A stretch of 28,347 nucleotides of DNA from a virus, in the IMG/VR virus record IMGVR_UViG_3300025314_000079, positions 1-28,347 of that record; one strand, written 5' to 3'. Of this stretch, positions 3,029 through 25,409 are shown one piece after another. The position numbers and the translations under genes are program-made. Within the stretch, counting starts at the first letter, position 1; every line of letters starts with the position of its first letter. Under the pieces are notes generated by a model. That model was not told the DNA's origin, did not search any database, and worked only from the letters and a program-made list of their open reading frames with translations.

Positions 3029-3492
3029 AAACAATCCTTGATGTGTGTTGCGGAAAAAAGGCGATGTGGTTTGATAAACAAGATGAAAGGGCTTTTTACG
3101 TGGACATTCGCAATGAAGTAATCACCCCCGATAAACGCCCTGGGCGCAAGCCCTGGGTTATCCAGCCCGATAGCGTTGCGAACTTTACCGCATTGCCTTT
3201 TGCTGATAATTCTTTTTCCGTTGTTGTCTTTGACCCGCCGCATGTGAGTTTCGGTAAAACAAGTTTCATGGCGGCGATGTACGGCAGGCTTGAAGGCGAT
3301 TGGCGCGAAATGCTGCGCAAAGGTTTTGTAGAGTGTTTTCGCGTTCTGCGCCCACAAGGTGTTTTGATTTTCAAGTGGAATGAGATGGAGCATGGCCTCG
3401 CGGAAATTCTGAAACTTACGCCAGAACAACCACTCTTTGGTCACAAGACAGGGCGCGCAACAGGTACGCATTGGGTAACTTTCACGAAGTGA
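3025..3492 (+). CDS. phage class I SAM-dependent methyltransferase
   Basis: A 155-residue protein starting at GTG 3025, coupled to the preceding gene. Residues 6-10 are DVCCG, a SAM-binding motif I. D27 in YVDIR fits the acidic end of strand 2. D70-P-P-H73 corresponds to the catalytic D/N-P-P-Y/F/H motif of amino-methyltransferases acting on DNA or protein. The C-terminal pattern FRVLRPQGVLIFKWNE and PLFGHKTGR is familiar from a compact phage methyltransferase family. The likely role is modification of phage or host DNA, but no target-recognition domain is visible, so the substrate is unknown. It is the last gene before the structured region at 3489-3844. Confidence 0.8.
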   Translation: MKTILDVCCGKKAMWFDKQDERAFYVDIRNEVITPDKRPGRKPWVIQPDSVANFTALPFADNSFSVVVFDPPHVSFGKTSFMAAMYGRLEGDWREMLRKGFVECFRVLRPQGVLIFKWNEMEHGLAEILKLTPEQPLFGHKTGRATGTHWVTFTK

Positions 3493-3500
3493 CCGGTCAC
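3489..3500. promoter_or_regulatory. 12-bp perfect palindrome, candidate operator
   Basis: GTGACCGGTCAC is its own reverse complement. It overlaps the methyltransferase stop codon and lies 11 nt upstream of the -35 box of the promoter at 3512-3538. That is a typical place for a dimeric regulator to bind. Binding itself is inferred. Confidence 0.4.
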
Positions 3501-3511
3501 AAATATCACCC

Positions 3512-3538
3512 TTTACTTTCTTCCGAAGGTTGTATAAT
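3512..3538 (+). promoter_or_regulatory. putative sigma70-like promoter
   Basis: TATAAT at 3533-3538 is a perfect -10 box. TTTACT at 3512-3517 is a 4/6 match to the -35 box with a 15-bp spacer, slightly short. Transcription would start near 3545, at the first arm of the structured region that follows. Confidence 0.45.
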
Positions 3539-3543
3539 GAGTA

Positions 3544-3815
3544 TGCCAGCGGGTTGACCCGTAGCAGATCGGCTACAGAGTGGGACGCGAAAACTGGCAA
3601 AGCGGGCGGCGGCGAAAGCCGTTAGCAAATCTAATAGCCTTATACTCCTAATCATACCGATTAGCGGTGACAATGAAGGCCCGCCCGCAGCAACACAAGA
3701 CCCGCGCCGTGTATGCAGAAACCCGTTTTTACGGTGCTAAACTAGAGACGGCAGAGCGGCGCGGGTCACAACAAAACATTGCCAGCCTGCATCTCGCGGA
3801 ATTTGCGGCTGGTAA
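3544..3815 (+). ncRNA. candidate structured non-coding RNA or long leader
   Basis: This stretch of about 270 nt has no convincing gene but holds four consecutive folded domains. Domain 1 is closed by TGCCAG (3544-3549) with CTGGCA (3594-3599) and encloses hairpins 3550-3561 and 3561-3576. Domain 2 is closed by GCGGGCGG (3602-3609) with CCGCCCGC (3681-3688) and encloses CGGC-GAAA-GCCG (3610-3621, a GNRA tetraloop) and CTAATC/GATTAG (3648-3664). Domain 3 has an 11-bp perfect stem, 3699-3709 with 3757-3767, enclosing CCGT-TTTT-ACGG (3723-3734). Domain 4 pairs 3779-3787 with 3807-3815 with one G-U. It follows the promoter at 3512-3538 and precedes the gene at 3845. I match it to no known RNA family. 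It may be a stand-alone RNA or a leader. Confidence 0.55.
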
Positions 3816-3844
3816 CTAGTACGAAAAACTCAAAAGGAGAAACG

Positions 3845-4033
3845 ATGATAATCAAAGAGAAAATGAGCGGAAAAATTCTAAATAATAGCCAAATAAAGCG
3901 GCGTATTGAAAAGCAGATTGACTATATTCGCAAAATGATTTTGTCTAAAACAATGCCAGAAAGCAGAATCAGCGACTGGCAAGACGAAATCGAGCGATTG
4001 GAGAAAGTTCTAAAGACCCACGAATCCGCTTGA
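3845..4033 (+). CDS. small helical basic protein, 62 aa
   Basis: ATG 3845 follows AAAAGGAG (3832-3839). The protein is mostly helix-forming and charged: IKRRIEKQIDYIRKMILSK, then SDWQDEIERLEKVLKTHESA, likely a short coiled coil. Its start context GGAGAAACGATGA is repeated exactly at the next gene, and its stop lies in a 14-nt sequence (4027-4040) repeated at the end of that gene. Function unknown. Confidence 0.6.
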   Translation: MIIKEKMSGKILNNSQIKRRIEKQIDYIRKMILSKTMPESRISDWQDEIERLEKVLKTHESA

Positions 4034-4040
4034 CACTTCG
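4027..4040 (+). repeat. 14-nt direct repeat, copy 1
   Basis: CGCTTGACACTTCG occurs here and at 4254-4267. Each copy contains the stop codon of a small gene plus a TTGACA hexamer. This copy has no -10 box at the right distance. Confidence 0.7.
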
Positions 4041-4065
4041 GGCGATGCAACGAAAGGGAGAAACG

Positions 4066-4260
4066 ATGAACGACAACGAATGTGACCACTGCACCGCACA
4101 GGTGCTGAAAGAAACCGAAACGCATGAGTTAGATTTGTGCGAATGGGAATGTCAAAAGCTGGTACTCTATGAAAAAGTCGGGGAAGGCGAAATCCGTGAA
4201 ATTGCGACGTTCAGCCTTGATTACCTTGTGGAATTGGTAATGTATGGCAAACTCGCTTGA
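4066..4260 (+). CDS. small acidic cysteine-containing protein, 64 aa
   Basis: ATG 4066 follows AAAGGGAG (4053-4060) with a 5-nt spacer. The N-terminus has CDHC (C-x-x-C) and later two Cys in LDLCEWECQKL, so a small zinc site is possible. The C-terminus (EIREIATFSLDYLVELVMYGKLA) looks helical. The start context matches that of the gene at 3845. The stop overlaps the -35 box of the strong promoter at 4257-4285. Confidence 0.6.
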   Translation: MNDNECDHCTAQVLKETETHELDLCEWECQKLVLYEKVGEGEIREIATFSLDYLVELVMYGKLA

Positions 4261-4267
4261 CACTTCG
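4254..4267 (+). repeat. 14-nt direct repeat, copy 2
   Basis: Exact copy of the sequence at 4027-4040. Here the TTGACA serves as the -35 element of a complete promoter because TAATAT follows 17 bp downstream. Confidence 0.7.
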
Positions 4268-4285
4268 AACGGTATCGAGTAATAT
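4257..4285 (+). promoter_or_regulatory. near-consensus sigma70 promoter
   Basis: TTGACA (4257-4262), a 17-bp spacer and TAATAT (4280-4285) match the bacterial housekeeping promoter at all -35 positions and 5 of 6 -10 positions or nearly so. Transcription would start near 4292. The transcript would open with the structured leader at 4302-4422 and then enter the replication genes. Confidence 0.75.
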
Positions 4286-4301
4286 TGAGAAGTAAGACAA
4301 A

Positions 4302-4422
4302 AGCGGAGTGGCTGCCGCTATAGAGAACAAACCGGCAAAGCGAATCATTTCTTTTTGCGTGCTTGTCGCCCACCCCGCCGGGGGTGCCAGCCACAGGCGC
4401 AGGCACGCGAAAGGGAATGATT
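4302..4422 (+). ncRNA. structured leader RNA with sequestered ribosome binding site and predicted pseudoknot
   Basis: A small hairpin pairs AGCGG (4302-4306) with CCGCT (4315-4319). A long hairpin pairs 4343-4365 with 4400-4422: 23 consecutive pairs, of which 4 are G-U and none mismatched. It is topped by CGCC/GGCG (4367-4370 with 4396-4399) and CACCCC/GGGGTG (4371-4376 with 4381-4386). The small hairpin's loop GTGGCTG (4308-4314) is perfectly complementary to CAGCCAC (4388-4394), which lies in the unpaired side of the long hairpin, so a loop-loop contact is predicted. AAAGGG (4410-4415), the best ribosome binding site for the gene at 4429, is inside the long stem. The structure suggests control of translation. 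Confidence 0.65.
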
Positions 4423-4428
4423 TTTATT

Positions 4429-4626
4429 ATGGACAAACTGACAGCAAACCAGTATTACGAGTTACAAGCGCAATATGACCGAACGCCAGCGCCGGGGGAT
4501 TCCTTTGGTGCAAGCGGGGAGCATTATGTTTTAGTTGCCATCTTAAAGCGTATCGGGTTCAACGAACCGGACAAATGGAAGGCGCTAAAGTTGGCAGAAA
4601 GGTTACTTGAAAATGGCTACTCATAA
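4429..4626 (+). CDS. small phage protein, 65 aa, downstream of structured leader
   Basis: ATG 4429 (MDKLTANQYYELQAQYD) is preferred. An in-frame ATG at 4417 is only one nucleotide from AAAGGG and cannot be served by it. From 4429 the spacing to AAAGGG is 13 nt, rather long, which fits conditional translation under the upstream RNA fold. The protein is helical in its second half (PDKWKALKLAERLLENGYS). No family recognised. It overlaps the next gene by 14 nt. Confidence 0.55.
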   Translation: MDKLTANQYYELQAQYDRTPAPGDSFGASGEHYVLVAILKRIGFNEPDKWKALKLAERLLENGYS

Positions 4627-4801
4627 AAGTGTTACCGACCCGTTGCTGCGCAAAATTATGGCACATGAATTGTGGGTACTGCGCAGTCAAATAAAGCGCA
4701 TGGGTTACTCACGAAGCTCCGAAACCTATCTATGGATTGTGATGGGCTTCGAGACGGCATTAAGGCGCGTTGAACACGCGCAAAGATTGGGGGAGAGATG
4801 A
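4613..4801 (+). CDS. small helical hypothetical protein, 62 aa
   Basis: ATG 4613 lies 10 nt after AAAGG (4598-4602). The protein reads MATHKSVTDPLLRKIMAHELWVL, then SQIKRMGYSRSSETYLWIVMGFETALRRVEHAQRL, mostly helix. Its stop overlaps the next start (ATGA at 4798-4801), so the two are coupled. Function unknown. Confidence 0.55.
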   Translation: MATHKSVTDPLLRKIMAHELWVLRSQIKRMGYSRSSETYLWIVMGFETALRRVEHAQRLGER

Positions 4802-5094
4802 GCCAACAACAAGCCGAATACAAAGTAGACGGATGGGTGTATCTAATACAACCAGTTGGTCATAATGTATATAAGATTGGGAATACTACTAACCTGGAAA
4901 AGCGCATCACCCAGAATATAAAGAAACTAAAGCACTCAGTAAAACTTATTCACGCCTTTAGAAGTAAGAATTGTTTTCACTCTGAGCAAGATGCGCATAT
5001 TATTTTTTCTCACGCTCACCTTGTTAGTGAATGGTTTATTCTGTCAGATAAGGACGTGGCCGCGTTTTGTGCCATAAAGGATTATGAACTATGA
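4798..5094 (+). CDS. GIY-YIG domain protein of the T5orf172/MUG113 type
   Basis: A 98-residue protein in which residues 12-36 (GWVYLIQP, then YKIGNT, then NLEKRI) match the GIY-YIG core as it appears in the T5orf172/MUG113 group: Y15, Y25-K-I-G28 and R36. E63 and H67 in HSEQDAH and E78-W-F in the C-terminal half match the conserved E-x-x-H and EWF positions. The family is nuclease-like; whether this small copy cuts DNA is unknown. The gene is visibly more AT-rich than its neighbours, hinting at separate acquisition. It is coupled to both neighbours (ATGA at 4798; next start 5091). Confidence 0.75.
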   Translation: MSQQQAEYKVDGWVYLIQPVGHNVYKIGNTTNLEKRITQNIKKLKHSVKLIHAFRSKNCFHSEQDAHIIFSHAHLVSEWFILSDKDVAAFCAIKDYEL

Positions 5095-5828
5095 GCGGCA
5101 ATCAAAGATTTTCAATTACGCCAGCGGTTGCAGTAGAAGATACAACCCTTAGCGATTCTGTGTTCAGGACGCTTGCCTGCTTGGGCGTTTATGGCGACAA
5201 AAACGGTTGGTGCTGGCCTTCACTCAAAACGATTGCAGACATGCGCGGCGTATCGAAAGAACGAATCAGCGCAGATATAAAGATATTGGTTCAGCGGGGA
5301 TATGTCCAAAAGAAGGAACGATACCAGGACAATACACAGATCACAAATATGTACAGGATTTTATTTGACACGTCAGTTACCCCCCCATTAACCCCAGAAG
5401 TTAACCCCCCATTAACTACTGAGATTAATACCCCATTAACCCCAGAAGTTAATCAGAACGCCCCAATTAACGACCTACTTAACGATAAAGAAGAAGCTGC
5501 AAAATCCGCCGAAGTATTCACCTTTTACCAGAACAACATCGAAATGCTAACACCCTACAATTCACAGCTTCTTGGTGACTTTATCGATACCTACTCCGCC
5601 CACTGGGTGATGGAAGCCCTGGAAGATTGCGCCGAATATAATCACAAGAATATCCGTTACTGCGAAGCCATCCTAAAGGGTTGGAAAGCTAACGGGTTCC
5701 GGGTTGATAACAGACAGAAAGGGAATTATGCAAAACAGAATTACAGAACTCAAAGAATTGTTACACCAGCGCCAGTTATCACAGACGCCCAGCGCGCCCT
5801 CGCAGCCCAAATCCTTGCCGGTGATTGA
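5091..5828 (+). CDS. DnaD-like replication initiation protein
   Basis: A 245-residue protein, ATG 5091 overlapping the previous stop. Residues about 18-90 form a winged helix typical of phage initiators: LSDSVFRTLACLGVY, W40-C-W-P-S-L, IADMRGVSKERISADIKILVQRG. Residues 97-121 are a threefold repeat (T/P-P-L-T-x-E-V/I-N). Residues about 142-203 fit a DnaD/DnaB_2 domain (FTFYQNNIEMLTPYN, then the pattern ending YCEAILKGWKANGF). Such proteins bind the origin and bring the helicase loader, which is encoded next. The DNA for the repeat is iteron-like, so the origin may lie within the gene. The last 101 nt overlap the loader gene in another frame. Confidence 0.8.
   Translation: MSGNQRFSITPAVAVEDTTLSDSVFRTLACLGVYGDKNGWCWPSLKTIADMRGVSKERISADIKILVQRGYVQKKERYQDNTQITNMYRILFDTSVTPPLTPEVNPPLTTEINTPLTPEVNQNAPINDLLNDKEEAAKSAEVFTFYQNNIEMLTPYNSQLLGDFIDTYSAHWVMEALEDCAEYNHKNIRYCEAILKGWKANGFRVDNRQKGNYAKQNYRTQRIVTPAPVITDAQRALAAQILAGD
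5383..5471 (+). repeat. iteron-like tandem repeats inside the initiator gene
   Basis: CCCCATTAAC starts at 5383, 5407 and 5431, a strict 24-bp period, and a variant CCCCAATTAAC starts at 5461. Copies 1 and 3 are identical over 22 bp (5383-5404 and 5431-5452). Within a copy, ATTAAC and GTTAAY flank a 7-bp centre as an inverted repeat, suiting a dimeric or multimeric binder. By analogy with lambda O, whose binding sites lie in its own gene, this is a candidate replication origin. Confidence 0.55.
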
Positions 5829-6492
5829 GTGCGATTATTGCGACGGCAGGAAGTTCTACACATACAACGTTGATGTAGATCATCCCTACTTTGGCCGGGC
5901 GTTTCCTTGCCCGAAATGCAACAAGCCCGCCCTGGATGCGCTTTGTGGACTGCGCACACACGAACGAGAAATAACACTCAAAACGCTAAGGGTGACAAGC
6001 GCTACACCATGCACCGCCGAAATAAAGCGGCGTGCCCAGGCGTTTATCGGCAATCCACGCGGGCTACTGCCAATATACGGCACGAACGGGAACGGCAAAA
6101 CTATTGCGCTTATGGCGATTGTAAACGCTTGTATTGAAAAGGGTATCGAAGCCCGCTACATTACCGGCCACGAATTGATGGATTATCTGAAAGAAGCCTT
6201 CGACCCTAAAGTGATGGATACGGACATCGCCAGAATCAATCGGCTTGCAAGAATACCAGTTCTGGTAATTGACGAACTCGAAAAGGCAAAAGATACCGAG
6301 TACGCTGCCGACATGCAGCAACACCTGATAAACGAACGGTATAGGGATGCAAAGATTTTAGGGACTGTCATTTGTTGGAATGGAGAAATGAACACTTTGC
6401 CCTGGCCCGCCGTTGTATCTCGTTTGAGTGAGTATAAGCCTGTAAAAAACACCGACCCGGATTTACGGGCCGCGATAGGGGAAATGAAATGA
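5728..6492 (+). CDS. DnaC-like AAA+ helicase loader with N-terminal zinc finger
   Basis: A 254-residue protein starting at ATG 5728, 4 nt after AAAGGG (5718-5723). The start lies 101 nt inside the initiator gene. C35-x2-C38 and C61-x2-C64 form a zinc site, as in DnaI/DnaC-type loaders that use this domain to contact the helicase. Walker A is GTNGNGKT (118-125) and Walker B is VLVIDEL (178-184). R232 in VVSRLSE may be the arginine finger. The expected role is ATP-dependent loading of a replicative helicase at the origin with the DnaD-like partner. No phage helicase is in the window, so a host DnaB is the likely partner. Confidence 0.85.
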   Translation: MQNRITELKELLHQRQLSQTPSAPSQPKSLPVIECDYCDGRKFYTYNVDVDHPYFGRAFPCPKCNKPALDALCGLRTHEREITLKTLRVTSATPCTAEIKRRAQAFIGNPRGLLPIYGTNGNGKTIALMAIVNACIEKGIEARYITGHELMDYLKEAFDPKVMDTDIARINRLARIPVLVIDELEKAKDTEYAADMQQHLINERYRDAKILGTVICWNGEMNTLPWPAVVSRLSEYKPVKNTDPDLRAAIGEMK

Positions 6493-16006: not shown

Positions 16007-16671
16007 TTAAAGTTTCCCTTCTTTTTCTTTTTCAATCTGCCTGCGCATTTTTAGCCCGGTCGATTTCAGACGGACAACGGCGTCAAGTAAGGCGGCGGGC
16101 TGCTGCATGGCTTCGCTTAGTGTCCATTTCCACTCGCACGCTTCCATGATTTCCAGCATCCGCACGGCGTCATCAATAAGCGAATGGTGTATGCCCGCAA
16201 ATGGTTCGTTTCCCAGGTCTGAGTTATCCGAAAAGTCACAATAAAATTCAGAGAGAAAACTCAGGATTTGCTTTTTTTTTCTTCATCGCCGCCGGTTACG
16301 GCTTCATCGGCTTTGCTTTCGAGTAGATGCGGGTTATCTTCAAAAACGCGATTTTGCCAGACATCGAAAAGCGCGGCGGGGAGCAGGCAGAACGATTCCC
16401 ACTCCAGCTTACGCACGTCAATCTCTGTGCCATCAATTGAGATGAATCCCGTAGAACAGGACACGCACGCGGGGAACACTACCAGGGCAATCCAGGTAGT
16501 ATCCAGGTCAGTAAAATCGATGTCCGCGCGCTTGCCGGTAAAGTAGGCAATCCGGGAACGCTTGGTACTATCGATGGTCGTTTCGTTGTGCGTCTCAATT
16601 TTGGCGACATAATGGACTTGCTTTTTCTCGCCATTGACACGCTGGGTTAGAGTATGGTCAAGTTCAATCAT
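16007..16671 (-). CDS. tail assembly chaperone GT, -1 frameshift product, 221 aa
   Basis: The GT form is made from the G frame by a -1 slip on the run of nine A (T on the + strand, 16272-16280). After K133 translation continues as KQILSFLSEFYCDF and is open for 88 codons to the TAA at 16007-16009, just before the tape measure start. The extension is acidic and helical (LIDDAVRMLEIMEACEWKW) with a basic end (LKMRRQIEKEKEGKL). In siphophages the G and GT proteins coat the tape measure before tail tube assembly. The absence of a stop and of any start codon context for a separate gene in 16007-16260 supports a frameshift. Confidence 0.75.
16261..16671 (-). CDS. tail assembly chaperone G, 136 aa
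   Basis: Chosen start is ATG at 16671 (MIELDHTLTQRVNGE). A longer version from GTG 16704 would lie within the terminator hairpin at 16690-16710. No good ribosome binding site is visible, so this start is moderately sure. The protein is an alpha/beta domain (IDFTDLDTTWIALVVFPAC, then LEWESFCLLPAALFDVW) ending in a Lys-rich tail DEEKKSKS that is encoded by the slippery run. Position between major tail protein and tape measure is diagnostic for the family. Confidence 0.7.
   Translation of the reverse strand: MIELDHTLTQRVNGEKKQVHYVAKIETHNETTIDSTKRSRIAYFTGKRADIDFTDLDTTWIALVVFPACVSCSTGFISIDGTEIDVRKLEWESFCLLPAALFDVWQNRVFEDNPHLLESKADEAVTGGDEEKKSKS
16272..16280 (-). other. programmed -1 ribosomal frameshift site
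   Basis: On the coding strand the sequence is GAA GAA AAA AAA AGC. It contains A AAA AAA in the correct register for X-XXY-YYZ slippage. A -1 slip avoids the TGA at 16261-16263 and opens the GT extension. The site is at the 3' end of G, as in lambda and many other siphophages. Confidence 0.75.
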
Positions 16672-16684
16672 AATAATGGCAGTC

Positions 16685-16710
16685 AAAAAGGGCGGGGCTT
16701 TCACCCGCCC
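16685..16710 (-). terminator. rho-independent terminator after the major tail protein gene
   Basis: Read on the - strand, GGGCGGG (16710-16704) pairs with CCCGCCC (16696-16690), a 7-bp stem followed directly by five T (16689-16685). It lies between the major tail protein stop (16723) and the chaperone start (16671). It probably reduces, rather than stops, transcription into the chaperone and tape measure genes, which are needed in smaller amounts. Confidence 0.7.
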
Positions 16711-16722
16711 GGCTGTTTTGAT

Positions 16723-17565
16723 TTACACACGAACCAGTAACGGCCCTTCGTACAGACAGGTGACGGTTTTGCCAACACCATCGGTGTCGTAACCGGGCGA
16801 AACTGCGAAGGTAACGCCGGTTTTGGCCTTGCTGTAATCACTAGTTGCGGCCAGGACATCATTGACCCATACGCCTAAAATGGCGGCGTCGCTGTCCGTT
16901 GCGGCCTTGTCGGTGTCAAACGGGAATGCCACATCTGAACTCGTGACCTTCCAGCCGACAAGATACGGATAGCCGGTCGAGGCGAATTGCCCCACCTGTG
17001 CGGTAGTAGCGCCGTTGGTCGCGCTTGTCCAAGAGTCGCCCCACAGTTTGCGGGTGCTGATGGCAGGCGCGATTTTGTAACGCAAGTCTGCGGTGGCGTC
17101 AGTCATGGCGGACGGCATAAACACGACTTTGGCAGAGCTAAAGATATAGCTTTCCCAACGCCGTAACCCGCTGATGTTCTGTGTTTGGCGGGCGAACCAC
17201 GCGCCCATGATAGGCTCGAAGCCCATTTGGGATGTCTGCAACGGGTTCAGCTTGGCCGTACCAATGGTCTCGGTCTTGACCCCACCCACTGCGGCCTGAA
17301 TGTTCAACTCTGTGGCCGATGTGGTAAGTTCCGCGTCCATGCCTTCCAGGGCCGGGAGCCAGTCAATCTGTAACGGGCGGTCTTGGCCGACGTGCGTAAT
17401 TTTGCGCGGCTCGGTGATGTTCATCGTCAGGCCCTTCGGCCCGTAGACGACAAGCCCATAATAGGGCGTCATGTTTGTTGCTTTAATGCGTCCGGTCGTT
17501 TGGTCGAGTTCGTAGAATACGGCCAACCGCGTGCCGGAAGCGAAGTATCTATCTTCCATTGTCAT
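16723..17565 (-). CDS. major tail (tube) protein, 280 aa
   Basis: ATG at 17565 overlaps the previous stop (ATGA) and follows AGGAG; an ATG two codons later is possible. The protein has the size and beta-rich make-up of a siphovirus tube protein: GLVVYGPKGLTMNITEPRKI, then GTAKLNPLQTSQMGFEP, and a C-terminal Ig-like segment (TVTCLYEGPLLVRV). It lies directly upstream of the frameshifted chaperones, separated by a terminator. High-level expression is expected. Confidence 0.75.
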   Translation of the reverse strand: MTMEDRYFASGTRLAVFYELDQTTGRIKATNMTPYYGLVVYGPKGLTMNITEPRKITHVGQDRPLQIDWLPALEGMDAELTTSATELNIQAAVGGVKTETIGTAKLNPLQTSQMGFEPIMGAWFARQTQNISGLRRWESYIFSSAKVVFMPSAMTDATADLRYKIAPAISTRKLWGDSWTSATNGATTAQVGQFASTGYPYLVGWKVTSSDVAFPFDTDKAATDSDAAILGVWVNDVLAATSDYSKAKTGVTFAVSPGYDTDGVGKTVTCLYEGPLLVRV

Positions 17566-17999
17566 GGTATGTACTCCTGTGCGGTTACGGTTAGGCCGCA
17601 ACCATAGAATTTACCCGCCGGGTCTGTAAGCTGCCCAAACGATGTAACAGAAACTTTCTTAATACTCATGGCGACCAGGTCAATCCTGATCAGCTTTGAC
17701 ACCAATGTATAAACCAGCGTCGCCATGCCGTTATAAAAATCAGAGATACCGCGCCCGGTGCTTAGTTGTGCGTATGCCAGGACGTAGGTCAGGTTGTGCT
17801 CATATTGCACGCGGCCCGCGATGACGTTATCAAAGTTTCCCGGAGTCGCTGCGCCTTGCCCCAGCCAGTTAGACGGAGACGGGAACAAGAGCGGGCAATC
17901 CCTATCAAAAACTTCCTGCGGGATATTTGACAGGCTCTTGATAGTCAGTCCCGTAATGGTCAGGGCGGCAATGGCGGAGTCGAGGGTTTGAGCGCTCAT
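17562..17999 (-). CDS. tail terminator/completion protein candidate, 145 aa
   Basis: ATG at 17999 overlaps the connector stop. Sequence includes LDSAIAALTITGLTIKSLSNIPQ, RVQYEHNLTYVLAYAQL, then FYNGMATLVYTLVSKLIRIDLVAMSIKKV. The helix then two-strand-helix order and place immediately before the major tail protein suit a tail terminator (lambda gpU-like fold). I saw no signature motif, so this is position-based inference. Confidence 0.5.
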   Translation of the reverse strand: MSAQTLDSAIAALTITGLTIKSLSNIPQEVFDRDCPLLFPSPSNWLGQGAATPGNFDNVIAGRVQYEHNLTYVLAYAQLSTGRGISDFYNGMATLVYTLVSKLIRIDLVAMSIKKVSVTSFGQLTDPAGKFYGCGLTVTAQEYIP

Positions 18000-18583
18000 C
18001 CGAATGTTATCCTGCGGTGATTGTGTATTGCCTGCAATGCCTTCGCTGGCACATCTTCGGGCGTCACGAGTAGGCCGCCTGCGGTGATGGTTGTGATCCC
18101 GCTCATATTCTCGCCAAAGCGCCGATTGTAGGACGCCTTTGCAATCATGAGACAAGCTTCTTTGATGTCAAGCGGGCAGGATATACCAGTAGCGCCGGTC
18201 ACTTCGATACACTGCAACGGGTTCCCGTTGTCTGTTTTCCACGTCACGCCGACGGTGGGGATTAGTTGTAATCCGTACTTTGGTACGCTATTGGCTGGCA
18301 ACAGCACATAGGCAGTAGACGCGATGATTGCCCCGTCGCCATTGGTGACACTTGTAACGCTCGAAAAGTCATCATCAAAATAAAGCGTATTCCCGGCGGG
18401 GGTGTCGAAGTAGTGCGTGTCAGATGACGATTGATAGAAACGGCGCTGGGCTTCGGCATCAATATAGCGGGATGCGGCTTCGAGGATGGTTTCGGCAACC
18501 GAGTCATCGTCCGAACTGGTGGACGTAATCCGCGCCCAGGACTTGAACTCTGCAAGCGTGGCGTATCCGTTTGTAATCGTCAT
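17996..18583 (-). CDS. head-tail connector (gp6-like adaptor), 195 aa
   Basis: ATG at 18583 (MTITNGYATLAEFKSWARI) overlaps the previous stop (ATGA). The N-terminal helix pattern YATLAEFKSWARITS, DDSVAETILEAASRYIDAEAQRRFY is typical of HK97 gp6-like/SPP1 gp15-like adaptor proteins that sit below the portal. The C-terminal part (CPLDIKEACLMIAKASYNRR) also fits this helical family. Its position between capsid and tail genes agrees. Confidence 0.75.
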   Translation of the reverse strand: MTITNGYATLAEFKSWARITSTSSDDDSVAETILEAASRYIDAEAQRRFYQSSSDTHYFDTPAGNTLYFDDDFSSVTSVTNGDGAIIASTAYVLLPANSVPKYGLQLIPTVGVTWKTDNGNPLQCIEVTGATGISCPLDIKEACLMIAKASYNRRFGENMSGITTITAGGLLVTPEDVPAKALQAIHNHRRITFG

Positions 18584-19470
18584 TCGTCCGCCTCGGTCAA
18601 GACTTGCAAGGCTTTCTCTCCGCCCGCTGCCTGAATCAGCGCGTCAACTTCGCCGATGTATTGGTGAGTAATGGCAAGCTGCCCGGTCACAACGCCGTAT
18701 TGGAAAATCTTGTCACTTTGTTCGTTGAACGCGGTAATCAAATCGGCGTAGAGCTTGTTCGCTTTGTCTTGGTCACGTTCTTCGGCCAATTGTTTCAGGA
18801 TAGTATTGACCTTGCCCGACAATTCGAACGCCGTTGCTTTTGCCTGTTCTGCCTGCGGCCCAAGGGCGCGCGCTACAATCTCTAATCGTTGCCTTTGCAA
18901 AGTGACCTCGCCTGTGTACCCATACAAATGAGCACGCAATAGAATTGATTTATCTTGCAGTGTGACCTTGATACCGCGCCCGGTCGCAATGCCGAGCCAG
19001 AATGTAACGCCGTCCCGCTGGGCAAAGTATTCGGTATCGCTTGTCATCTCTACGCCGCAAATCTCAATCTCTTGATATCCCTTGTAGATTGCCAGGGCCA
19101 GGGCATAGGCGGCGGATGACGTGAAATACTTTACGGGCTTGCCTGATTTGCGGGCAATGTTTGGCAGTAGTGTTTCGCAAATCTCATCAAGCGGGTATTT
19201 CACCGAGGCGGGCACATCCGCAAAAACGTCTTGCATGAATACCGGGTAGTCGTGCGGCTGTTGTAACCATTCGTAGTGACCGGCAAAGTTCGTGTTTCCG
19301 GGATTGCGCCAAATCTTTTCAACGTGCATTTGAAACACGCCGTCGCAACGTTTGAACGCCGGGTGTGCACCCGTTTCGTTGAACAGCCAATAGTCTGTAT
19401 TGCTTTGCTCCCAATCCACGAATGGCAGGGTGATTCTATTTGCTCCGACAATACAGACTTTTGGCTTCAT
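18580..19470 (-). CDS. Rossmann-like protein of glycosyltransferase (MptE/DUF115-GT42) type with helical tail, 296 aa
   Basis: ATG at 19470; no clear ribosome binding site. Residues 1-190 begin KVCIVGANRITLPFVDWE and contain TSSAAYALALAIYKGY followed by EIEICGVEM. This S-(x)-A-Y-(x3)-A-(x6)-G-(x)-(x)-E-I-(x3)-G-V/I-E/D pattern is known from the GT42 sialyltransferase and DUF115/MptE-like Rossmann folds. A second protein in the window (22686-23354) has the same pattern. Residues 195-296 are long helices (QRLEIVARALGPQAEQAKATA, then ILKQLAEERDQDKANK). Phages often carry this protein type among head genes. The substrate is unknown and capsid glycosylation is speculative. Confidence 0.55.
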   Translation of the reverse strand: MKPKVCIVGANRITLPFVDWEQSNTDYWLFNETGAHPAFKRCDGVFQMHVEKIWRNPGNTNFAGHYEWLQQPHDYPVFMQDVFADVPASVKYPLDEICETLLPNIARKSGKPVKYFTSSAAYALALAIYKGYQEIEICGVEMTSDTEYFAQRDGVTFWLGIATGRGIKVTLQDKSILLRAHLYGYTGEVTLQRQRLEIVARALGPQAEQAKATAFELSGKVNTILKQLAEERDQDKANKLYADLITAFNEQSDKIFQYGVVTGQLAITHQYIGEVDALIQAAGGEKALQVLTEADE

Positions 19471-19473
19471 AGG

Positions 19474-19863
19474 TTATGAGCTGCGCTTGACCAGGAACAC
19501 GGTAGCCGAAACGCCAAGATTTGGCGTTCCGCCCGCAACGGTGCCGACGTAACGCAGGTTTGCTACGCTGGCAGGGATGGCAAATTCGATTTGCTCAAAC
19601 GCGGCGGTGTCGGATGAGTTCGCGGTAGTAAAAGCCGCGCCGGTAATGTCGGCAAAGTCAGTAGCCACAGTTGTGGCGCTGCCTTGCAGTTTTCCGGTAA
19701 TGTTGCCAACGTCGGTAGAGACGGCGCAGTTTACGACCGACTGAGTCGCAAACACCGAGCGTGTACCGGGGGAAGCGAAGTAGCCAGCCAGGGCCACCTG
19801 ATTGGCGGTAGCCGTTGCGGTGTACTTCGCTTTTACGAGATTCAGGCCATAAATGAGAGACAT
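19474..19863 (-). CDS. probable head decoration/structural protein, 129 aa
   Basis: ATG at 19863 follows AAAAGGATGG in the gap after the capsid gene. The protein has Ala/Thr-rich strands (NQVALAGYFASPGTRSVFAT, then VGNITGKLQGSATTVATDF and NLRYVGTVAGG) typical of small beta-sandwich phage structural proteins that follow the major capsid gene. Decoration of the capsid is inferred from this order; a tail or head-completion role cannot be excluded. Confidence 0.5.
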   Translation of the reverse strand: MSLIYGLNLVKAKYTATATANQVALAGYFASPGTRSVFATQSVVNCAVSTDVGNITGKLQGSATTVATDFADITGAAFTTANSSDTAAFEQIEFAIPASVANLRYVGTVAGGTPNLGVSATVFLVKRSS

Positions 19864-19878
19864 TGTGACACCATCCTT

Positions 19879-21276
19879 TTAGGCGGTATAGCCCAGGAAT
19901 TTCATCATCCAGTAGCGAACCAAATCGCCGCCGACACGCTTGCGCATGTAGACCACGACCTGATCGCGCATCCCCAGAATATAGGGATTGACTTCGACCG
20001 AAAGACCAACGCGGTCGATGATGAAGTAGCCCTTCATGTTACCGAGCGCGGCAACGGTTTTCGCGGTGCCCTGCGCATAAGTCGGCATGAACTGATTGCG
20101 GGCAGTGGCGTAACCCAAAAGCATGGCCTGATAGTTGTTGCCCAAGTTAGGCCAGGAGTCACCAAGTGACCACTGCGGCAGGGTGGCGGTGCCAGCGTTC
20201 AGCGCGCGGATGCGGCTGTAGGTGTTCTTGGCGGCATACCATTTCGCGCCTTCTTCATACTGCGGGGCGAGCGCAGCCTCGACGCCGAACAAGCCGGTGC
20301 CAGCTGCGGCGGTGCCCCAGGCCAGGTCAGACGAACCGGTGCCGACATAATCGCCGGAATAGGTCACGCCCGCAACGGTGCTTGTGGAACCCTGCGCAAT
20401 GCTCGCGGCGGGGTGGGACAGGAAACCGCGCGGTTTGCCGTTGCCGTCGCCATTCGTGAACGCATCTTCTTCACCCAGGCTAAAGGCTTCGGCTCCGAGT
20501 TCGGAGATATAGCCCAGGATGTCAAAGCTGTTGTCTTCAATCTGCGCCCGCTGCAAGATGATCGCGGCGGTGGCCAGATGGACAGGGATTTTGATTTGCC
20601 CGGATACCGGGTTGGTGGCTTCGGAGATGTCCGAAGTCTGCGCGCCTGCGCCCTGCCAGGTAAAGCGCACGCCGCTGGTGTACTGGTCTGCGGTCGTGGC
20701 ATAATTGGCCTGGGGGAAGGTCACTTCATTGGTGCCGGTGGTATAGACACTGGCATTGGGCCGCACGCTGGTGACAGTCGCCATGCGTTTGACAAGCTCG
20801 GCGCGGAAGTCAGGCGGAAGCCAGGCTTCGCCAGCCGTCCAGGAGCCTTCGTTCAGCACCTTCATGGCACGCCCGGCGCGGTCGGTGTTCTTGGTGCCCA
20901 TGCCCCGGATGTACTCGGCAAAGGCGTCCTTATACGCGGCGCTTTTCAGGTGTGCGACGTTCTTAGATCCGCTGTAACTGCCCGCAATGGAGTAGATTTC
21001 ACCACTGCGCGGATCGGCAGAAACGCCGGGGATGTCGCCTTCATCGGGAAGGGCCATGCGGTCAAACGACGCAGCAACGGCAGAACCGGCGGACTTATCG
21101 CCCCAATCCTTGACTGCCTTCGCGCGTGTCTGCGCGTCGATTTGGTTTTTCAGACCTTCGGCCTGTTCCACCAAACCTTGATACGATTTCATTTGCTCGC
21201 CGGTCAGCGATTCGGACAGGTTGAAGCCGTCCAACTTTTCAATCACTGACTTGAGAGCGGTTTGCAAGTTATCCAT
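19879..21276 (-). CDS. HK97-type major capsid protein, 465 aa
   Basis: ATG at 21276 follows AAAGGAG, which lies in the last codons of the protease gene. Residues 1 to about 110 are a helical N-terminal delta domain (SLTGEQMKSYQGLVEQAEGL), likely a built-in scaffold removed by the protease. The mature part has AWLPPDFRAELVKRM, IKIPVHLATAAIILQ, and LGEEDAFTNGDGNGKPRGFL, a hallmark of the HK97 fold capsid family, and ends with a conserved P/A-domain sequence (YFIIDRVGLSVEVNP, RVGGDLVRYWMMKFL). It assembles the icosahedral head. Confidence 0.95.
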   Translation of the reverse strand: MDNLQTALKSVIEKLDGFNLSESLTGEQMKSYQGLVEQAEGLKNQIDAQTRAKAVKDWGDKSAGSAVAASFDRMALPDEGDIPGVSADPRSGEIYSIAGSYSGSKNVAHLKSAAYKDAFAEYIRGMGTKNTDRAGRAMKVLNEGSWTAGEAWLPPDFRAELVKRMATVTSVRPNASVYTTGTNEVTFPQANYATTADQYTSGVRFTWQGAGAQTSDISEATNPVSGQIKIPVHLATAAIILQRAQIEDNSFDILGYISELGAEAFSLGEEDAFTNGDGNGKPRGFLSHPAASIAQGSTSTVAGVTYSGDYVGTGSSDLAWGTAAAGTGLFGVEAALAPQYEEGAKWYAAKNTYSRIRALNAGTATLPQWSLGDSWPNLGNNYQAMLLGYATARNQFMPTYAQGTAKTVAALGNMKGYFIIDRVGLSVEVNPYILGMRDQVVVYMRKRVGGDLVRYWMMKFLGYTA

Positions 21277-21278
21277 TG

Positions 21279-22199
21279 TTACGCTCCTTTGAGTTTCAAA
21301 ATTCTTGCACGAAGTTGTAACGCTTCAAACTCCCGCGCCATGTCCGGCGCATCCGGGAGACTAATGCCTAACGATTTGAGAAATTCCGGGCTGCCATCCG
21401 TAAGCATTCGCGGCTCACAAGGTTGGTTAGTCAAAGCCGCAGCAAAGAAAGGCCACGTTTTGAGCCAGGTTGCTTTCCCGGTTTTTACCCGTTCGACGTA
21501 CTGCGGGGCGCTATCGGACGACGTACCCAGCTTGCCCGCCTTGATAAGTGCGTCAATCGCTTTGCGGTACTTGTGGGAGCCGTCCAGTTTTGCAACGTAC
21601 CAACGCCCAATTTCATCGTCGCCAAAATCCAAAATCGAACCAATAACGGGATTGGCCTTGAACTCGCTATCCTGGGCGTGATCCCACGTAAGCGGGCGGG
21701 CGTATTTACCTAATGTCGCATCCCAAAAATCAGTTTTGGGCGTGAAGTATTCCACGTCCAAATCAGCGACTTTCTCACTACCCCACAAGTGGGAGTAACC
21801 CCGGATTTCATCGGCCCCGATGGACTTGACGGCCAGCACATCGGCGGGCAGGTCAATCCCTAAACTTTTGGCATAGGATGATTTCAGCATGGTATTGTCA
21901 CCAACAAGTGACGCGAGATTTTCAAGGGTCATATCGACGGCTTCCGGCTCATCTTCTTCCGGTTCAAGTTCCCGCGTCAATTCAATCAGCGCGGCGGCCT
22001 GTTTACGGATGTCCAAAATAGTCAACTTATCCCGGCGGCTATTGCGCGCGCCGCTCTTGCTGGCTTCGGGTTCGTCAGCATACAGCGCCCGCAGTTGTGC
22101 GTCAGCTTTGGCGCGCGTGGCATGAGTCGCCACTACTTCCCCGGTCTCCTTGTTCACTACCGCGAACTTGTCATCTTTCTTTTCAATGGCGTAGGGCAT
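21279..22199 (-). CDS. prohead protease, S78-like, 306 aa
   Basis: ATG at 22199 follows GGGAG. The first 40 residues form a small separate domain found in other phage head proteins (PYAIEKKDDKFAVVNKETG). The protease core includes RPLTWDHAQDSEF with H174, then NPVIGSILDFGDDEIGRWY, KYRKAIDALIKAGKLGTSSDS with candidate catalytic Ser at 227-230, and PFFAAALTNQPCEPRML. Such a His/Ser pattern fits the HK97 prohead protease group, which cleaves the capsid delta domain. It directly precedes the capsid gene and is the first gene after the promoter at 22310-22338. Confidence 0.8.
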   Translation of the reverse strand: MPYAIEKKDDKFAVVNKETGEVVATHATRAKADAQLRALYADEPEASKSGARNSRRDKLTILDIRKQAAALIELTRELEPEEDEPEAVDMTLENLASLVGDNTMLKSSYAKSLGIDLPADVLAVKSIGADEIRGYSHLWGSEKVADLDVEYFTPKTDFWDATLGKYARPLTWDHAQDSEFKANPVIGSILDFGDDEIGRWYVAKLDGSHKYRKAIDALIKAGKLGTSSDSAPQYVERVKTGKATWLKTWPFFAAALTNQPCEPRMLTDGSPEFLKSLGISLPDAPDMAREFEALQLRARILKLKGA

Positions 22200-22222
22200 G
22201 GTATAGCTCCCGGAAAACGAAA

Positions 22223-22263
22223 AGCGGCGAAATGGTAGAGTTGTCTCTACACATTTCGCCGCT
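22223..22263 (-). terminator. leader hairpin, candidate attenuator
   Basis: AGCGGCGAAATG (22223-22234) pairs with CATTTCGCCGCT (22252-22263), continued by GTAGAG/CTCTAC (22235-22240 with 22245-22250) and one bulged base, an 18-bp stem. On the - strand TTTTCGTTTT follows at once. It lies between the promoter at 22310-22338 and the protease start, so it may attenuate the head operon or simply protect the mRNA end. Confidence 0.6.
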
Positions 22264-22309
22264 GAGTAATCAGCATCAGGCTAGATGCAAAGTATTAATC
22301 TGTAGGATT

Positions 22310-22338
22310 AGTATATGCTAATCGCAGAGATTTGTCAA
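22310..22338 (-). promoter_or_regulatory. near-consensus sigma70 promoter for the head-tail operon
   Basis: On the - strand TTGACA (22338-22333), a 17-bp spacer and TATACT (22315-22310). Transcription would begin near 22303 and run into the protease and capsid genes. An inverted repeat GATTAG/CTAATC (22306-22311 and 22318-22323 region) flanks the -10 box and may be an operator. Confidence 0.75.
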
Positions 22339-22342
22339 TGAT

Positions 22343-22374
22343 AAAAAACACCTTTCCGCTTCGCCCTGCGGAAA
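22343..22374 (-). terminator. terminator of the upstream packaging/accessory unit
   Basis: On the - strand the stem TTTCCGC/GCGGAAA (22374-22368 with 22359-22353, 8-nt loop) is followed 4 nt later by TTTTTT (22348-22343). It ends just before the promoter at 22338. Another GC hairpin, GCGGGC-CTGC-GCCCGC (22416-22431), stands upstream of it in the 3' region of the gene at 22451. Confidence 0.55.
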
Positions 22375-22450
22375 AATAATCCAACGGCTCGCAACCTTTG
22401 CGCGCGCCCTTTGTGGCGGGCCTGCGCCCGCAGGAACTGGTTTATTGTTT

Positions 22451-22675
22451 TCATCGTAGCCCCAATACGTCAGAAACCCACGCAAAAAATCCGACATTGC
22501 GCCCGGCTCTCGTTTCTCTAATTTCTTGCAAGAGATTTAGTTCGTGGTGATGTTTCTCTCTTTCGTCTTGCAACATCAAGCCCATTTGCATAACAATTTC
22601 AATAAGCTCGTCTCTTGTTTTGTTTTCGATGGGTTCTCCCATCCAGTACCCCTTGTGTTTAATTTTGTCGCTCAT
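22451..22675 (-). CDS. small hypothetical phage protein, 74 aa
   Basis: ATG at 22675 (MSDKIKHKGYWMGEPIENK) follows AAAGGA with a 6-nt spacer; the frame is open further upstream but overlaps the next gene. A helical middle (TRDELIEIVMQMGLMLQDER) with His/Glu residues and an amphipathic C-terminus (VGFFAWVSDVLGLR) that could touch a membrane. Last gene of the upstream unit, before terminator hairpins. Function unknown. Confidence 0.55.
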   Translation of the reverse strand: MSDKIKHKGYWMGEPIENKTRDELIEIVMQMGLMLQDEREKHHHELNLLQEIRETRAGRNVGFFAWVSDVLGLR

Positions 22676-22685
22676 AAGTAATCCT

Positions 22686-23354
22686 TTACTCCAAAAGTTC
22701 GTGTGTCTCTGTGCATATCTGGCCGAAGTCGGTATCGCGCGCGGTGTGTACGTAGTCTCGCATGTTGCCCCGCGTGAATATCTTATCCAACTCTGAAGGC
22801 GGGGACAGGTTGATAATCTCGCGTCCATTCTCGCTGTAAATCGTTTGGGCCAGCGTGAAGTGATAGCGCATCCCTTCCATGTTCGGGTTCTTTGCCTGCG
22901 GATAGCTGGGGTCAAAATGCTCAAACGATTGGGTGTGATCCACGCCCACAAGTAGCGCCCGCTTGAAGCCCATAAAGAACGCGATTTTCAGGGCCACATA
23001 AACGGCAGTGTTGCCGCTCATGTATTTCTCACAGTCAAAGACGAAGGTATCAGCCCCGACCGGGATGTGATTCGGCAATGAGCGCAGGCGGTCAAGCAGC
23101 GGGTTAGGCAGAATGTAGCTGCTGATAAACGCGTGCCGGGCCATCGCCGCGACGTTGTAAATTTCTCCGGCGTTGTGGCATAGAACTGTGCTATCGATAC
23201 AGGTGTAGTATGTGGGATAGAACGGCAAGCGGTTGATGTAGTTACACCCGAACGATGGATACTTGCGCAGCAATTCATCCGGGACGGTTTTCAGGCTCGG
23301 CCCGTTTCCAATGATTACGCAGGTTTCGCCGGTGTGGTCAGGGAGTGCGCTCAC
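22686..23354 (-). CDS. DUF115/MptE-like Rossmann protein, putative glycosyltransferase-related, 222 aa
   Basis: GTG at 23354 (MSALPDHTGETCVIIGNGPSL) is chosen because it overlaps the stop of the newly recognised 56-aa gene (23351-23521) as GTGA. A longer frame from TTG 23504 would cover that gene completely. The protein begins with CVIIGNGPSLK, the NGPSL signature of DUF115/6-hydroxymethylpterin-pyrophosphokinase MptE-like proteins, and contains MSGNTAVYVALKIAFFMGF followed by LLVGVDH, the same pattern as the protein at 18580-19470. These folds include flagellin-glycosylation accessory factors and sialyltransferase-like enzymes. A sugar-transfer role is inferred only. Confidence 0.65.
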   Translation of the reverse strand: MSALPDHTGETCVIIGNGPSLKTVPDELLRKYPSFGCNYINRLPFYPTYYTCIDSTVLCHNAGEIYNVAAMARHAFISSYILPNPLLDRLRSLPNHIPVGADTFVFDCEKYMSGNTAVYVALKIAFFMGFKRALLVGVDHTQSFEHFDPSYPQAKNPNMEGMRYHFTLAQTIYSENGREIINLSPPSELDKIFTRGNMRDYVHTARDTDFGQICTETHELLE

Positions 23355-23521
23355 ATTATGCTCTCTAACTTTTTGTGGTGATACTTTTCCCAATCGTTCT
23401 TTGTTAGCGATTTGGTGCATTCCTGGCAATACACTTCGTAAAGTATTCTGCCGTCTAACAAGGGGCTTATTGCCGCAGCGGGAATGTGAAATCCCAAAGC
23501 GCAAAGGATTTTCCTAATCAC
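23351..23521 (-). CDS. small zinc-ribbon-like protein, 56 aa
   Basis: GTG at 23521 overlaps the stop of the gene at 23518 (GTGA), and the stop at 23351-23353 overlaps the GTG start of the next gene. The translation MIRKILCALGFHIPAAAISP, then LYEVYCQECTKSLTKNDWEK, has C7 and H12 plus C32-x2-C35, a common small phage zinc-binding layout. The reading frame is shorter than usual cut-offs. The alternative long frame across this stretch gives sequence without recognisable order. Confidence 0.6.
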   Translation of the reverse strand: MIRKILCALGFHIPAAAISPLLDGRILYEVYCQECTKSLTKNDWEKYHHKKLESIM

Positions 23522-23709
23522 AATTCGCCTTCCGTTTCTTCGACAGAATACGTCTCATCAAAGTTCTTTTCCTTGCGGGCGGTCTTGTTCTTTTCTGCGC
23601 AAAACGCATCTGCCCGCGCCCTATCAGAGAAAATCTTAACGATACTATCATCGTAGGACTCGCCCCACTTATCATAATCCGTGTGACAAGTAACGGCGTA
23701 TAGTTTCAT
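23518..23709 (-). CDS. small hypothetical phage protein, 63 aa
   Basis: ATG at 23709 (MKLYAVTCHTDYDKWGESYD) follows AGGTGG with a 5-nt spacer; GTG at 23718 is the other option. The pattern strand-helix (DDSIVKIFSDRARADAFCAE) then a charged end (TYSVEETEGEL) is typical of small alpha/beta phage proteins of unknown role. Confidence 0.55.
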   Translation of the reverse strand: MKLYAVTCHTDYDKWGESYDDSIVKIFSDRARADAFCAEKNKTARKEKNFDETYSVEETEGEL

Positions 23710-23718
23710 GCTATCCAC

Positions 23719-23844
23719 CTATTGAGTTATCCAATTACCAAGCCAGGACGGGCACGGAATACAAAAGATTCGCAGGATGCGAAACTCGTATTTTTGCGTT
23801 CTTAGATTATATGCAATCCATTTGTTCCGAACGGGGTAATACAT
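23719..23844 (-). CDS. very small hypothetical protein, 41 aa
   Basis: ATG at 23844 follows GGGAG with a 6-nt spacer, just after the ferritin stop. The product MYYPVRNKWIAYNLRTQKYE, ending PCPSWLGNWITQ, is rich in Trp, Tyr and Arg. Longer frames upstream overlap the ferritin gene out of frame and are not believed. No family recognised; the good ribosome binding site is the main support. Confidence 0.45.
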   Translation of the reverse strand: MYYPVRNKWIAYNLRTQKYEFRILRIFCIPCPSWLGNWITQ

Positions 23845-23845
23845 A

Positions 23846-24316
23846 TCACGCTCCCAGGGAGTTGTCGAATACCAATCTATCCACCGGGCGCGCCAGCATT
23901 TTGAGATAGTCTCCAATCTCGCGGATGCTGCGGCGCTGCTCGACCAGGAACGGGAATATAAACTCACAGGCGTCATACTCGCCCGCTTCTTCGGCCATGC
24001 GGTAGATTTCCTTGATAGTTTCATCGGTCAGGACTTCGCGCGCCATTGCGGCCTGAAAAAAGGCGGTATGGTCATCTCCAGCAGGGGAGGCAACGCGCAC
24101 AATGTCGCTGATTTCTGGCAGGACGTTTTTGTCTACCAGGAACGCGGCCACTTTTGCGGCGTGCTCCCGTTCTTCATCCGCTGCGTGCTTGCACCACTTC
24201 GCAAGGCCGGGCCAGTTGACGTTGTCAGCTTGAACAAAAAGCGCATCATAGGCGGCGCTGTTTTGGCGCTCGGTGGTGTGCCATTCTTGGAATGCCTGGG
24301 TTAGTGTGCTATCCAT
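23846..24316 (-). CDS. ferritin-like protein (FtnA type), 156 aa
   Basis: ATG at 24316 follows GGGAG with a 7-nt spacer and overlaps the previous gene by 8 nt. The sequence fits a four-helix ferritin: E16 with Y23, PGLAKWCKHAADEEREHAAK with E49 and H52, E94 in AMAREVLTD, and Q127 in FLVEQ. From memory, E. coli FtnA uses E17, Y24, E50, H53, E94 and Q127, so all diiron-site ligands are present in register. FtnA E130 is replaced by S130. The helix IKEIYRMAEEAGEYDA also fits. Such proteins oxidise and store iron. It lies among phage head genes, an unusual place; a host-derived morphon is possible. Confidence 0.75.
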   Translation of the reverse strand: MDSTLTQAFQEWHTTERQNSAAYDALFVQADNVNWPGLAKWCKHAADEEREHAAKVAAFLVDKNVLPEISDIVRVASPAGDDHTAFFQAAMAREVLTDETIKEIYRMAEEAGEYDACEFIFPFLVEQRRSIREIGDYLKMLARPVDRLVFDNSLGA

Positions 24317-25263: not shown

Positions 25264-25409
25264 TTTCGCTTGCCTTTCTTTTCTCCGCGCGTGACAATCC
25301 AGGTGTATCCCAAAACAAGGACAGACCAGACAAACATGAGCGGCGTCAGCGTTCTTATGACGTGCTCGCTATCTCTGAAAAAATTCATACCGGACGGTTC
25401 AAGGCTCAT
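25260..25409 (-). CDS. small single-span membrane protein, 49 aa
   Basis: ATG at 25409 follows GGAG with a 10-nt spacer. The stop overlaps the next start as ATGA. Residues 21-40 (LTPLMFVWSVLVLGYTWIVT) form one transmembrane helix, followed by a strongly basic tail (RGEKKGKRK) that by the positive-inside rule stays in the cytoplasm. It was missed by length cut-offs. A lysis role such as a holin-like protein is possible, but nothing in the sequence proves it. Confidence 0.55.
   Translation of the reverse strand: MSLEPSGMNFFRDSEHVIRTLTPLMFVWSVLVLGYTWIVTRGEKKGKRK

What the first reader, a model, noticed from the sequence alone, without database searches (positions are those of the whole stretch)
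4257..4428. Promoter-driven leader RNA with a 23-bp hairpin that hides a ribosome binding site and a predicted loop-loop contact
The sequence shows TTGACA-17 bp-TAATAT, then a 5-bp hairpin (4302-4319) and an 80-nt hairpin whose base stem has 23 consecutive pairs (4343-4365 with 4400-4422), of which 4 are G-U and none mismatched. The loop of the small hairpin (4308-4314) is perfectly complementary to seven unpaired bases of the big one (4388-4394). AAAGGG (4410-4415), the only good ribosome binding site for the gene at 4429, is buried in the stem. The combination of wobble pairs and a precisely placed complementary loop suggests a selected structure. It may act as a translational switch placed upstream of the replication genes. 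No known RNA family was recognised.
Basis: partly seen in the sequence, partly recalled or inferred. Interest (0 to 1): 0.8.

Follow-up and report, generated by a model that had tools for sequence, protein, structure and literature searches.

The report
Pseudoknotted leader RNA of phage replication operon
In front of the replication genes of an uncultured phage, a strong promoter makes an RNA that folds into a very long hairpin with a knot, and leaders built on the same plan but with different letters sit in front of the replication genes of six other phages found here, so this looks like an undescribed kind of RNA switch.

Summary
In detail: promoter, 5-bp hairpin, 23-25-bp G-U-containing stem, 7-nt loop-to-bulge complementarity and buried AAAGGG are all at the stated places. 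Neither the stem (longest run 22 in 1500 whole-window shuffles) nor the contact (P 0.0002-0.0013) looks like chance. Nothing alignable was found, and no Rfam family matches. A structure model, then a topology scan, found eight leaders of the same plan in other, mostly metagenomic phages: sigma-70-like promoter, then an upstream segment complementary to the apical loop of a 12-34-bp hairpin (a crossing pairing). Sequences differ completely; topology is kept. Across nine leaders, non-Watson-Crick positions are 32 G-U against 1 A-C on the promoter strand, so the selected molecule is RNA of that strand. All seven lineages have such a leader at the head of an operon with a replication-initiator-like gene. 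In six of nine the long stem ends in a U-tract. Best reading: a cis-acting pseudoknotted leader that probably attenuates transcription (pT181-like logic, no antisense promoter seen); in this phage it also covers the only Shine-Dalgarno. Function is untested.

The parts
4257..4285 (+). sigma-70-type promoter TTGACA-17-TAATAT; transcription start expected near 4292
   Evidence: start position inferred
4302..4319 (+). small hairpin H1 (AGCGG/CCGCU, 8-nt loop)
4308..4314 (+). loop segment GUGGCUG, 5' partner of the crossing (pseudoknot) pairing
4342..4366 (+). 5' arm of the long stem S3
4367..4370 (+). 5' arm of the 4-bp upper extension of S3 (with 4396-4399), an alternative to the last pair of the 25-pair stem
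4371..4386 (+). inner hairpin CACCCC-GCCG-GGGGUG at the top of S3
4388..4394 (+). bulge segment CAGCCAC, 3' partner of the pseudoknot
4399..4423 (+). 3' arm of S3; contains AAAGGG
4410..4415 (+). AAAGGG, only Shine-Dalgarno-like site for 4429, buried in S3 (unpaired probability 0.00), 13 nt from the ATG
   Evidence: and the sequence
4421..4428 (+). U-rich tract at the foot of S3, terminator-like
4429..4626 (+). 65-aa ORF, first gene behind the leader, no homologue found
5091..5828 (+). replication initiator / DnaD-like gene of the operon (HTH_36, DnaB_2)
5728..6492 (+). DnaC-like helicase loader gene
3512..3767 (+). candidate second leader of the same plan (weak): promoter-like 3512-3538, helix 3548-3555/3720-3727 crossing 3699-3710/3756-3767
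   Evidence: -36.6 against best shuffle -34.1; fold z -4.1

Best explanation
The feature is the 5' leader of the phage's replication-operon mRNA. It folds as RNA of the + strand into a very long hairpin (S3) whose apical bulge is complementary to an upstream segment, giving a crossing (pseudoknotted) pairing. It is one of a recurrent, sequence-divergent set of leaders that sit between a sigma-70-like promoter and replication genes in this loose group of phages. Mechanism (inferred): while RNA polymerase moves through the leader, the upstream segment pairs first with the apical segment; when the 3' arm of S3 appears, S3 forms and displaces or strains that pairing. In most of these leaders S3 ends in a U-tract, so S3 most likely acts as a terminator (attenuator) whose formation depends on the earlier helices. 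In this phage S3 also covers the only Shine-Dalgarno, so it would turn down the first gene by translation too. Shown: structure beyond chance, recurrence, strand, gene context. Inferred: cis regulation, order of switching, the termination step, and what shifts the balance.
For: Structure beyond chance. Same plan in eight other leaders with different sequences; 8 promoter-anchored hits scoring 37 or more in 0.88 Mb of related phage DNA against 0.125 per shuffle, none above 33 in 0.98 Mb of unrelated phage DNA. G-U 32 against A-C 1 on the promoter strand, p 8e-9. In unknotted folding of growing transcripts the early helix forms before the S3 3' arm exists in all nine leaders (0.59-1.0, apart from helix S2 of L010A and L010B), then S3 takes over. 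UUUU at the S3 end in 6 of 9 leaders, background 6.4%, p 5e-6. Replication-initiator-like gene downstream in all seven lineages. No antisense promoter in any of the nine leaders.
Against: The leaders cannot be aligned, so homology is not shown and convergence is possible. Three leaders (L190, L010A, L010B) have no UUUU run at the stem end, and in the window the lower stem is A-U-rich, unlike a classical terminator. The early helix and S3 need not exclude each other here: the 27-nt link could span S3 (own geometric estimate). The crossing topology cannot be computed with the unknotted folding model used. Loci were sampled near replication/recombination genes, which inflates the context association. 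No transcript, probing or regulation data exist.
Confidence: 0.5

Rival explanations
1. Purely translational control: S3 hides the AAAGGG site of the 65-aa gene, and a protein, pseudoknot formation or RNase III cleavage of the 23-25-bp duplex opens it (as in the phage lambda N leader, IncI repZ or T4 gene 32).
For: AAAGGG is fully paired; the near-perfect 23-25-bp duplex would suit RNase III (own knowledge of the enzyme); phage and plasmid precedents exist.
Against: The ribosome site is fully buried in this leader only; spacing to the ATG is 13 nt, so the site is weak even when open; U-tracts are not explained.
Confidence: 0.25
2. A 5'-end protector of early mRNA: a stable knotted 5' structure blocks 5'-dependent decay (RNase J or RNase E/RppH type).
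For: In L188, L190, L010A, L010B and L021m the first helix starts at or near the expected transcription start; 5' roadblocks stabilise mRNA against RNase J (PMC3997798); structure without sequence conservation fits a physical barrier.
Against: In the window, L003 and L193 the crossing segment lies well inside the transcript; a plain 5' hairpin would do; U-tracts are not explained.
Confidence: 0.12
3. A small RNA: the transcript ends at the S3 U-tract and acts in trans, like other terminated phage small RNAs.
For: Promoter plus terminator-like stem frames a stand-alone RNA of about 135 nt.
Against: Always directly upstream of a gene start, usually with a Shine-Dalgarno right behind the stem; no conserved sequence that could be a seed.
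Confidence: 0.08
4. A DNA-level element (replication origin, protein site or hairpin DNA) with no RNA function.
For: It lies beside replication genes and contains long inverted repeats.
Against: Non-Watson-Crick positions are 32 G-U and 1 A-C on the promoter strand (p 8e-9); all copies lie behind promoters in sense orientation; topology is kept while sequence is not.
Confidence: 0.05

Closest known systems
pT181 / pIP501 rep leader attenuators (plasmid copy-number control)
   Same: Leader of a replication-initiator gene; an early pairing competes with a late stem just before the gene that resembles a terminator and, in pT181, contains the ribosome site (PMC5703833).
   Different: There an antisense RNA sets the balance; no antisense promoter was seen here. 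There the competing pairings share a strand; here they cross as a pseudoknot.
IncI / IncL-M repZ (repA) leader pseudoknot
   Same: Long-range loop pairing in the leader of a replication initiator (titles of references listed in PMC10724649).
   Different: There, by published titles and own knowledge, the pseudoknot switches translation on, with an antisense RNA; here the stems are 12-34 bp and no antisense promoter was seen.
T4 gene 32 leader pseudoknot
   Same: Pseudoknot in the 5' leader of a phage DNA-replication gene (PMC3014915).
   Different: That pseudoknot is conserved in sequence between T4, T2 and RB69 and is bound by its own gene product, gp32; the leaders here share no sequence, have stems up to 34 bp and occur with several unrelated genes.
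HK022 put RNA
   Same: Structured cis RNA behind early phage promoters, two copies per genome (PMC9378689).
   Different: About 70 nt, two stem-loops, sequence similar between copies; it suppresses termination rather than carrying a terminator-like stem.
Phage lambda N leader (nutL plus RNase III hairpin)
   Same: Promoter, small hairpin, then a large hairpin at the ribosome site of the first gene (own knowledge).
   Different: The topology scan found no comparable element in the lambda N-cI region, L210; no boxA or N-like gene was recognised here.

Membership tests
Any Rfam 15 family | covariance-model score at or above the gathering cut-off | tested here: not met
   No match in the window or in six related loci; the permissive search gave only weak hits
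pT181-type attenuator | late terminator-like stem directly before the first gene of a replication operon | tested here: met
   S3 and U-tract end at the start of the 65-aa gene; U-tract in 6 of 9 leaders
pT181-type attenuator | antisense RNA promoter inside the leader | tested here: not met
   No antisense promoter-like site in any of nine leaders at 9 of 12 matches; weaker promoters not excluded
pT181-type attenuator | termination in the leader depends on the competing pairing | not testable with these tools
   needs in vitro transcription
IncI repZ type pseudoknot | loop-to-distal-segment pairing in the leader of a replication gene | tested here: met
   7-nt contact, P 0.0002-0.0013; 8-16-nt contacts in other leaders
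IncI repZ type pseudoknot | pseudoknot activates translation, antisense RNA opposes it | not testable with these tools
   no expression data; no antisense promoter seen
HK022 put RNA | about 70 nt, two stem-loops, sequence shared between copies | tested here: not met
   Leaders here are larger and share no sequence even within one phage; definition from PMC9378689
T4 gene 32 operator | leader of the single-stranded-DNA-binding protein gene | tested here: not met
   Downstream genes are a 65-aa protein of unknown function, a replication initiator and a helicase loader
Lambda N leader | nut site (boxA plus boxB) and N-like antiterminator gene | tested here: inconclusive
   No boxA seen by eye; the first gene has no family match
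RNase III-processed leader | cleavage of the duplex in vivo | not testable with these tools
   A 23-25-bp perfect duplex would be a plausible substrate
Type III toxin-antitoxin RNA (ToxI) | tandem RNA repeats followed by a ToxN-like gene | tested here: not met
   No tandem repeats at 3400-4800; no defence-family hit in five nearby small proteins

The most novel reading that the evidence does not exclude
A new class of phage regulatory RNA: serial crossing helices (S1a S2a S3a S1b S2b S3b) made in order during transcription, in which each helix tends to exclude the next, the last being a terminator. It would be a pseudoknot-gated timer that needs no protein or antisense RNA and recurs in front of phage replication genes, with its topology but none of its sequence conserved.
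Probability: 0.3. Interest if true: 0.87.

Novelty: new variant of a known kind. Interest (0 to 1): 0.7.

Why it matters
Structured leaders that gate replication genes are well known in plasmids but little known in phages. A recurrent phage leader conserved only in topology would be missed by sequence and covariance searches, so it may be widespread and uncharted. It also makes a concrete, cheap test of whether crossing helices formed in order during transcription can act as an attenuator.

Tried and rejected
Sequence homologues of the leader and of the 65-aa gene: none in INPHARED, IMG/VR or GTDB genomes; single-sequence scans with the initiator and loader proteins found no close relatives in IMG/VR. 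Rfam at gathering and permissive thresholds: nothing. Retron, tRNA-like and type III toxin-antitoxin readings: no reverse-transcriptase-like product among the ORFs read, no tRNA, no tandem repeats, no defence-family hit. The structure model in 396 genomes of one bacterial class (that of the Promineifilum MAG holding L120): nothing, and such an empty answer shows little. The large-batch model search missed the L003 hit that a smaller batch found, so empty batch results were not trusted. A 14-nt shared motif (3591-3604 and 4329-4342) was considered as a family signature, but about one such match is expected by chance (own estimate). The 48-aa ORF at 3673-3819 was considered and is doubtful because predicted structure runs across it. 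Scan hits in L127 (low complexity), L139 (AT-rich) and L181 were set aside. Cultured-phage stretches L208-L211 (D6E, Mx4, lambda N-cI region, part of HK022) gave no convincing case; one weak stem in HK022 (L211 4328-4411) was not followed.

Full report
What was checked. The window is a 28,347-base IMG/VR virus record, with structural genes on the minus strand and a replication region on the plus strand. AAAGGG is buried in the 3' arm.

Chance. The fold is 4.9 standard deviations below shuffles. The longest G-U-allowed stem in 1500 dinucleotide shuffles of the whole window is 22 pairs, against 25 observed. With the stems held fixed and the unpaired letters shuffled, a 7-nt Watson-Crick match of the small loop to the bulge arises in 0.0175% of trials, and to any unpaired stretch in 0.13%.

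First relative. Nothing similar to the leader or the 65-aa product was found by sequence, and no Rfam family matches. A covariance model built from this one leader (R1), searched over a small batch, gave one good hit (E 6.9e-5) in phage record IMGVR_UViG_3300035130_000101 (L003 6436-6605, minus strand). It ends 93 nt upstream of a DnaD-like replication gene and lies behind two TTGACA-17-TATAAT promoters. It has a 28-bp stem with U-G pairs, AAAGGGG in its 3' arm, a U-tract, and an 8-nt perfect complementarity (GGACAGGG/CCCUGUCC) between the upstream leader and the apical bulge. The letters differ from the window; the arrangement is the same. That locus had been fetched because of weak DnaD-like similarity.

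A set of leaders. A scan for 'long stem plus upstream-to-apical-loop complementarity' over 2.3 Mb of loci put L008 (34-bp stem, 11-nt contact), L003, L118 = L010B (19 bp, 11 nt), L021 (16 bp, 12 nt), the window and L010A among its top hits, with a few others in between that were set aside (L127, L181, L139). Anchoring on promoters added L188 and L190 (same phage as L003) and L193. In the related phages 8 hits score 37 or more in 0.88 Mb; eight shuffles give 0.125 per shuffle, and 0.98 Mb of real DNA from unrelated phages (the methyltransferase set) gives none above 33. A stricter scan, requiring a helix that starts near the transcription start and crosses a later stem, again returns almost only these phages. 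In L008, L010A and L010B three mutually crossing helices are laid out in the order S1a S2a S3a S1b S2b S3b; in the others two are clear. These leaders cannot be aligned, so the claim is recurrence of topology, not proven homology.

RNA, and which strand. With G-U and A-C mismatches treated alike when the helices were extended, the promoter strand shows 296 Watson-Crick, 32 G-U, 1 A-C and 2 other pairs (p 8e-9). A DNA-level repeat, or RNA of the other strand, would not give this. Caution: three of the nine leaders came from a promoter-oriented scan; the five G-U-bearing leaders found without it (window, L003, L010A, L010B, L008) all agree in orientation with their promoters and genes.

Context. 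In all seven phage lineages a leader heads an operon that holds a replication-initiation-like gene (window 5091-5828; L003 5507-6349; L008 3738-4538; L010 2101-2904; L118 980-1786; L193 17980-18942; L174 3696-3983). Extra copies precede an HNH-like gene plus a primase-like gene with a DnaG zinc ribbon (L010A) and two other genes (L188, L190). Part of the association comes from how loci were fetched (near a protein common in replication regions, or by DnaD similarity), but L021m and L193 came from whole records scanned without that criterion. Most of these phages are known only from metagenomes; L118 lies in a genome bin of a wastewater-type assembly and its host is uncertain.

Mechanism. In unknotted folding of growing transcripts the early upstream-apical helix is present (0.59-1.0; helix S2 of L010A and L010B stays near 0) before the 3' arm of S3 is made, and S3 mostly takes over in the longest transcript (0.69-0.99). 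This model cannot represent both at once. Six of nine leaders have UUUU at the end of S3, against 6.4% expected (p 5e-6; the test was chosen after seeing the sequences). This is the layout of an attenuator: an earlier pairing and a late terminator-like stem just before the first gene. [quoted passage not shown] In this window S3 also hides the only Shine-Dalgarno; elsewhere the site lies outside the stem and is partly open, so ribosome-site hiding looks like a local extra. Geometry (own estimate, about 2.8 A per base pair and 6 A per linker nucleotide): in the window the 27 nt between the two elements can span S3, so pseudoknot and stem could coexist; in L008 a 4-nt link to a 34-bp stem makes its adjacent contact and the full stem exclusive.

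Verdict. A real, selected RNA structure; a recurrent leader type in this phage group that no library or paper found here describes; function most likely cis-regulatory for replication genes, probably by attenuation. The functional steps are inferred and untested.

Noticed in passing
window 3493-3845: A second strongly folding stretch without a convincing ORF (z -4.1), behind a TATAAT-type promoter, perhaps a second leader of the same plan (weak score).
   Followed up: partly
window 4027-4040 and 4254-4267: CGCTTGACACTTCG is repeated exactly; the first copy has no good -10 box.
   Followed up: no
L118 and L010: The two records share an identical leader and an identical initiator C-terminal half, but differ in the gene start and initiator N-terminal half between them, as if the DNA-binding part had been swapped next to the leader.
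   Followed up: no
L016 (IMGVR_UViG_3300025174_000570): A second record of the same phage, 100% identical to window 16245-28336; it does not reach the leader.
   Followed up: yes
window 4798-5094: Small GIY-YIG-like T5orf172/MUG113 protein inside the replication operon.
   Followed up: no
window 5383-5452: Three in-frame 24-bp repeats (CCCCATTAACCCCAGAAGTTAA) inside the initiator gene; such repeats within an initiator gene could be origin iterons.
   Followed up: no
window 22161-22380, both strands: The strongest folding stretch of the window relative to its G+C, on both strands, at a gene boundary; probably a bidirectional terminator.
   Followed up: no
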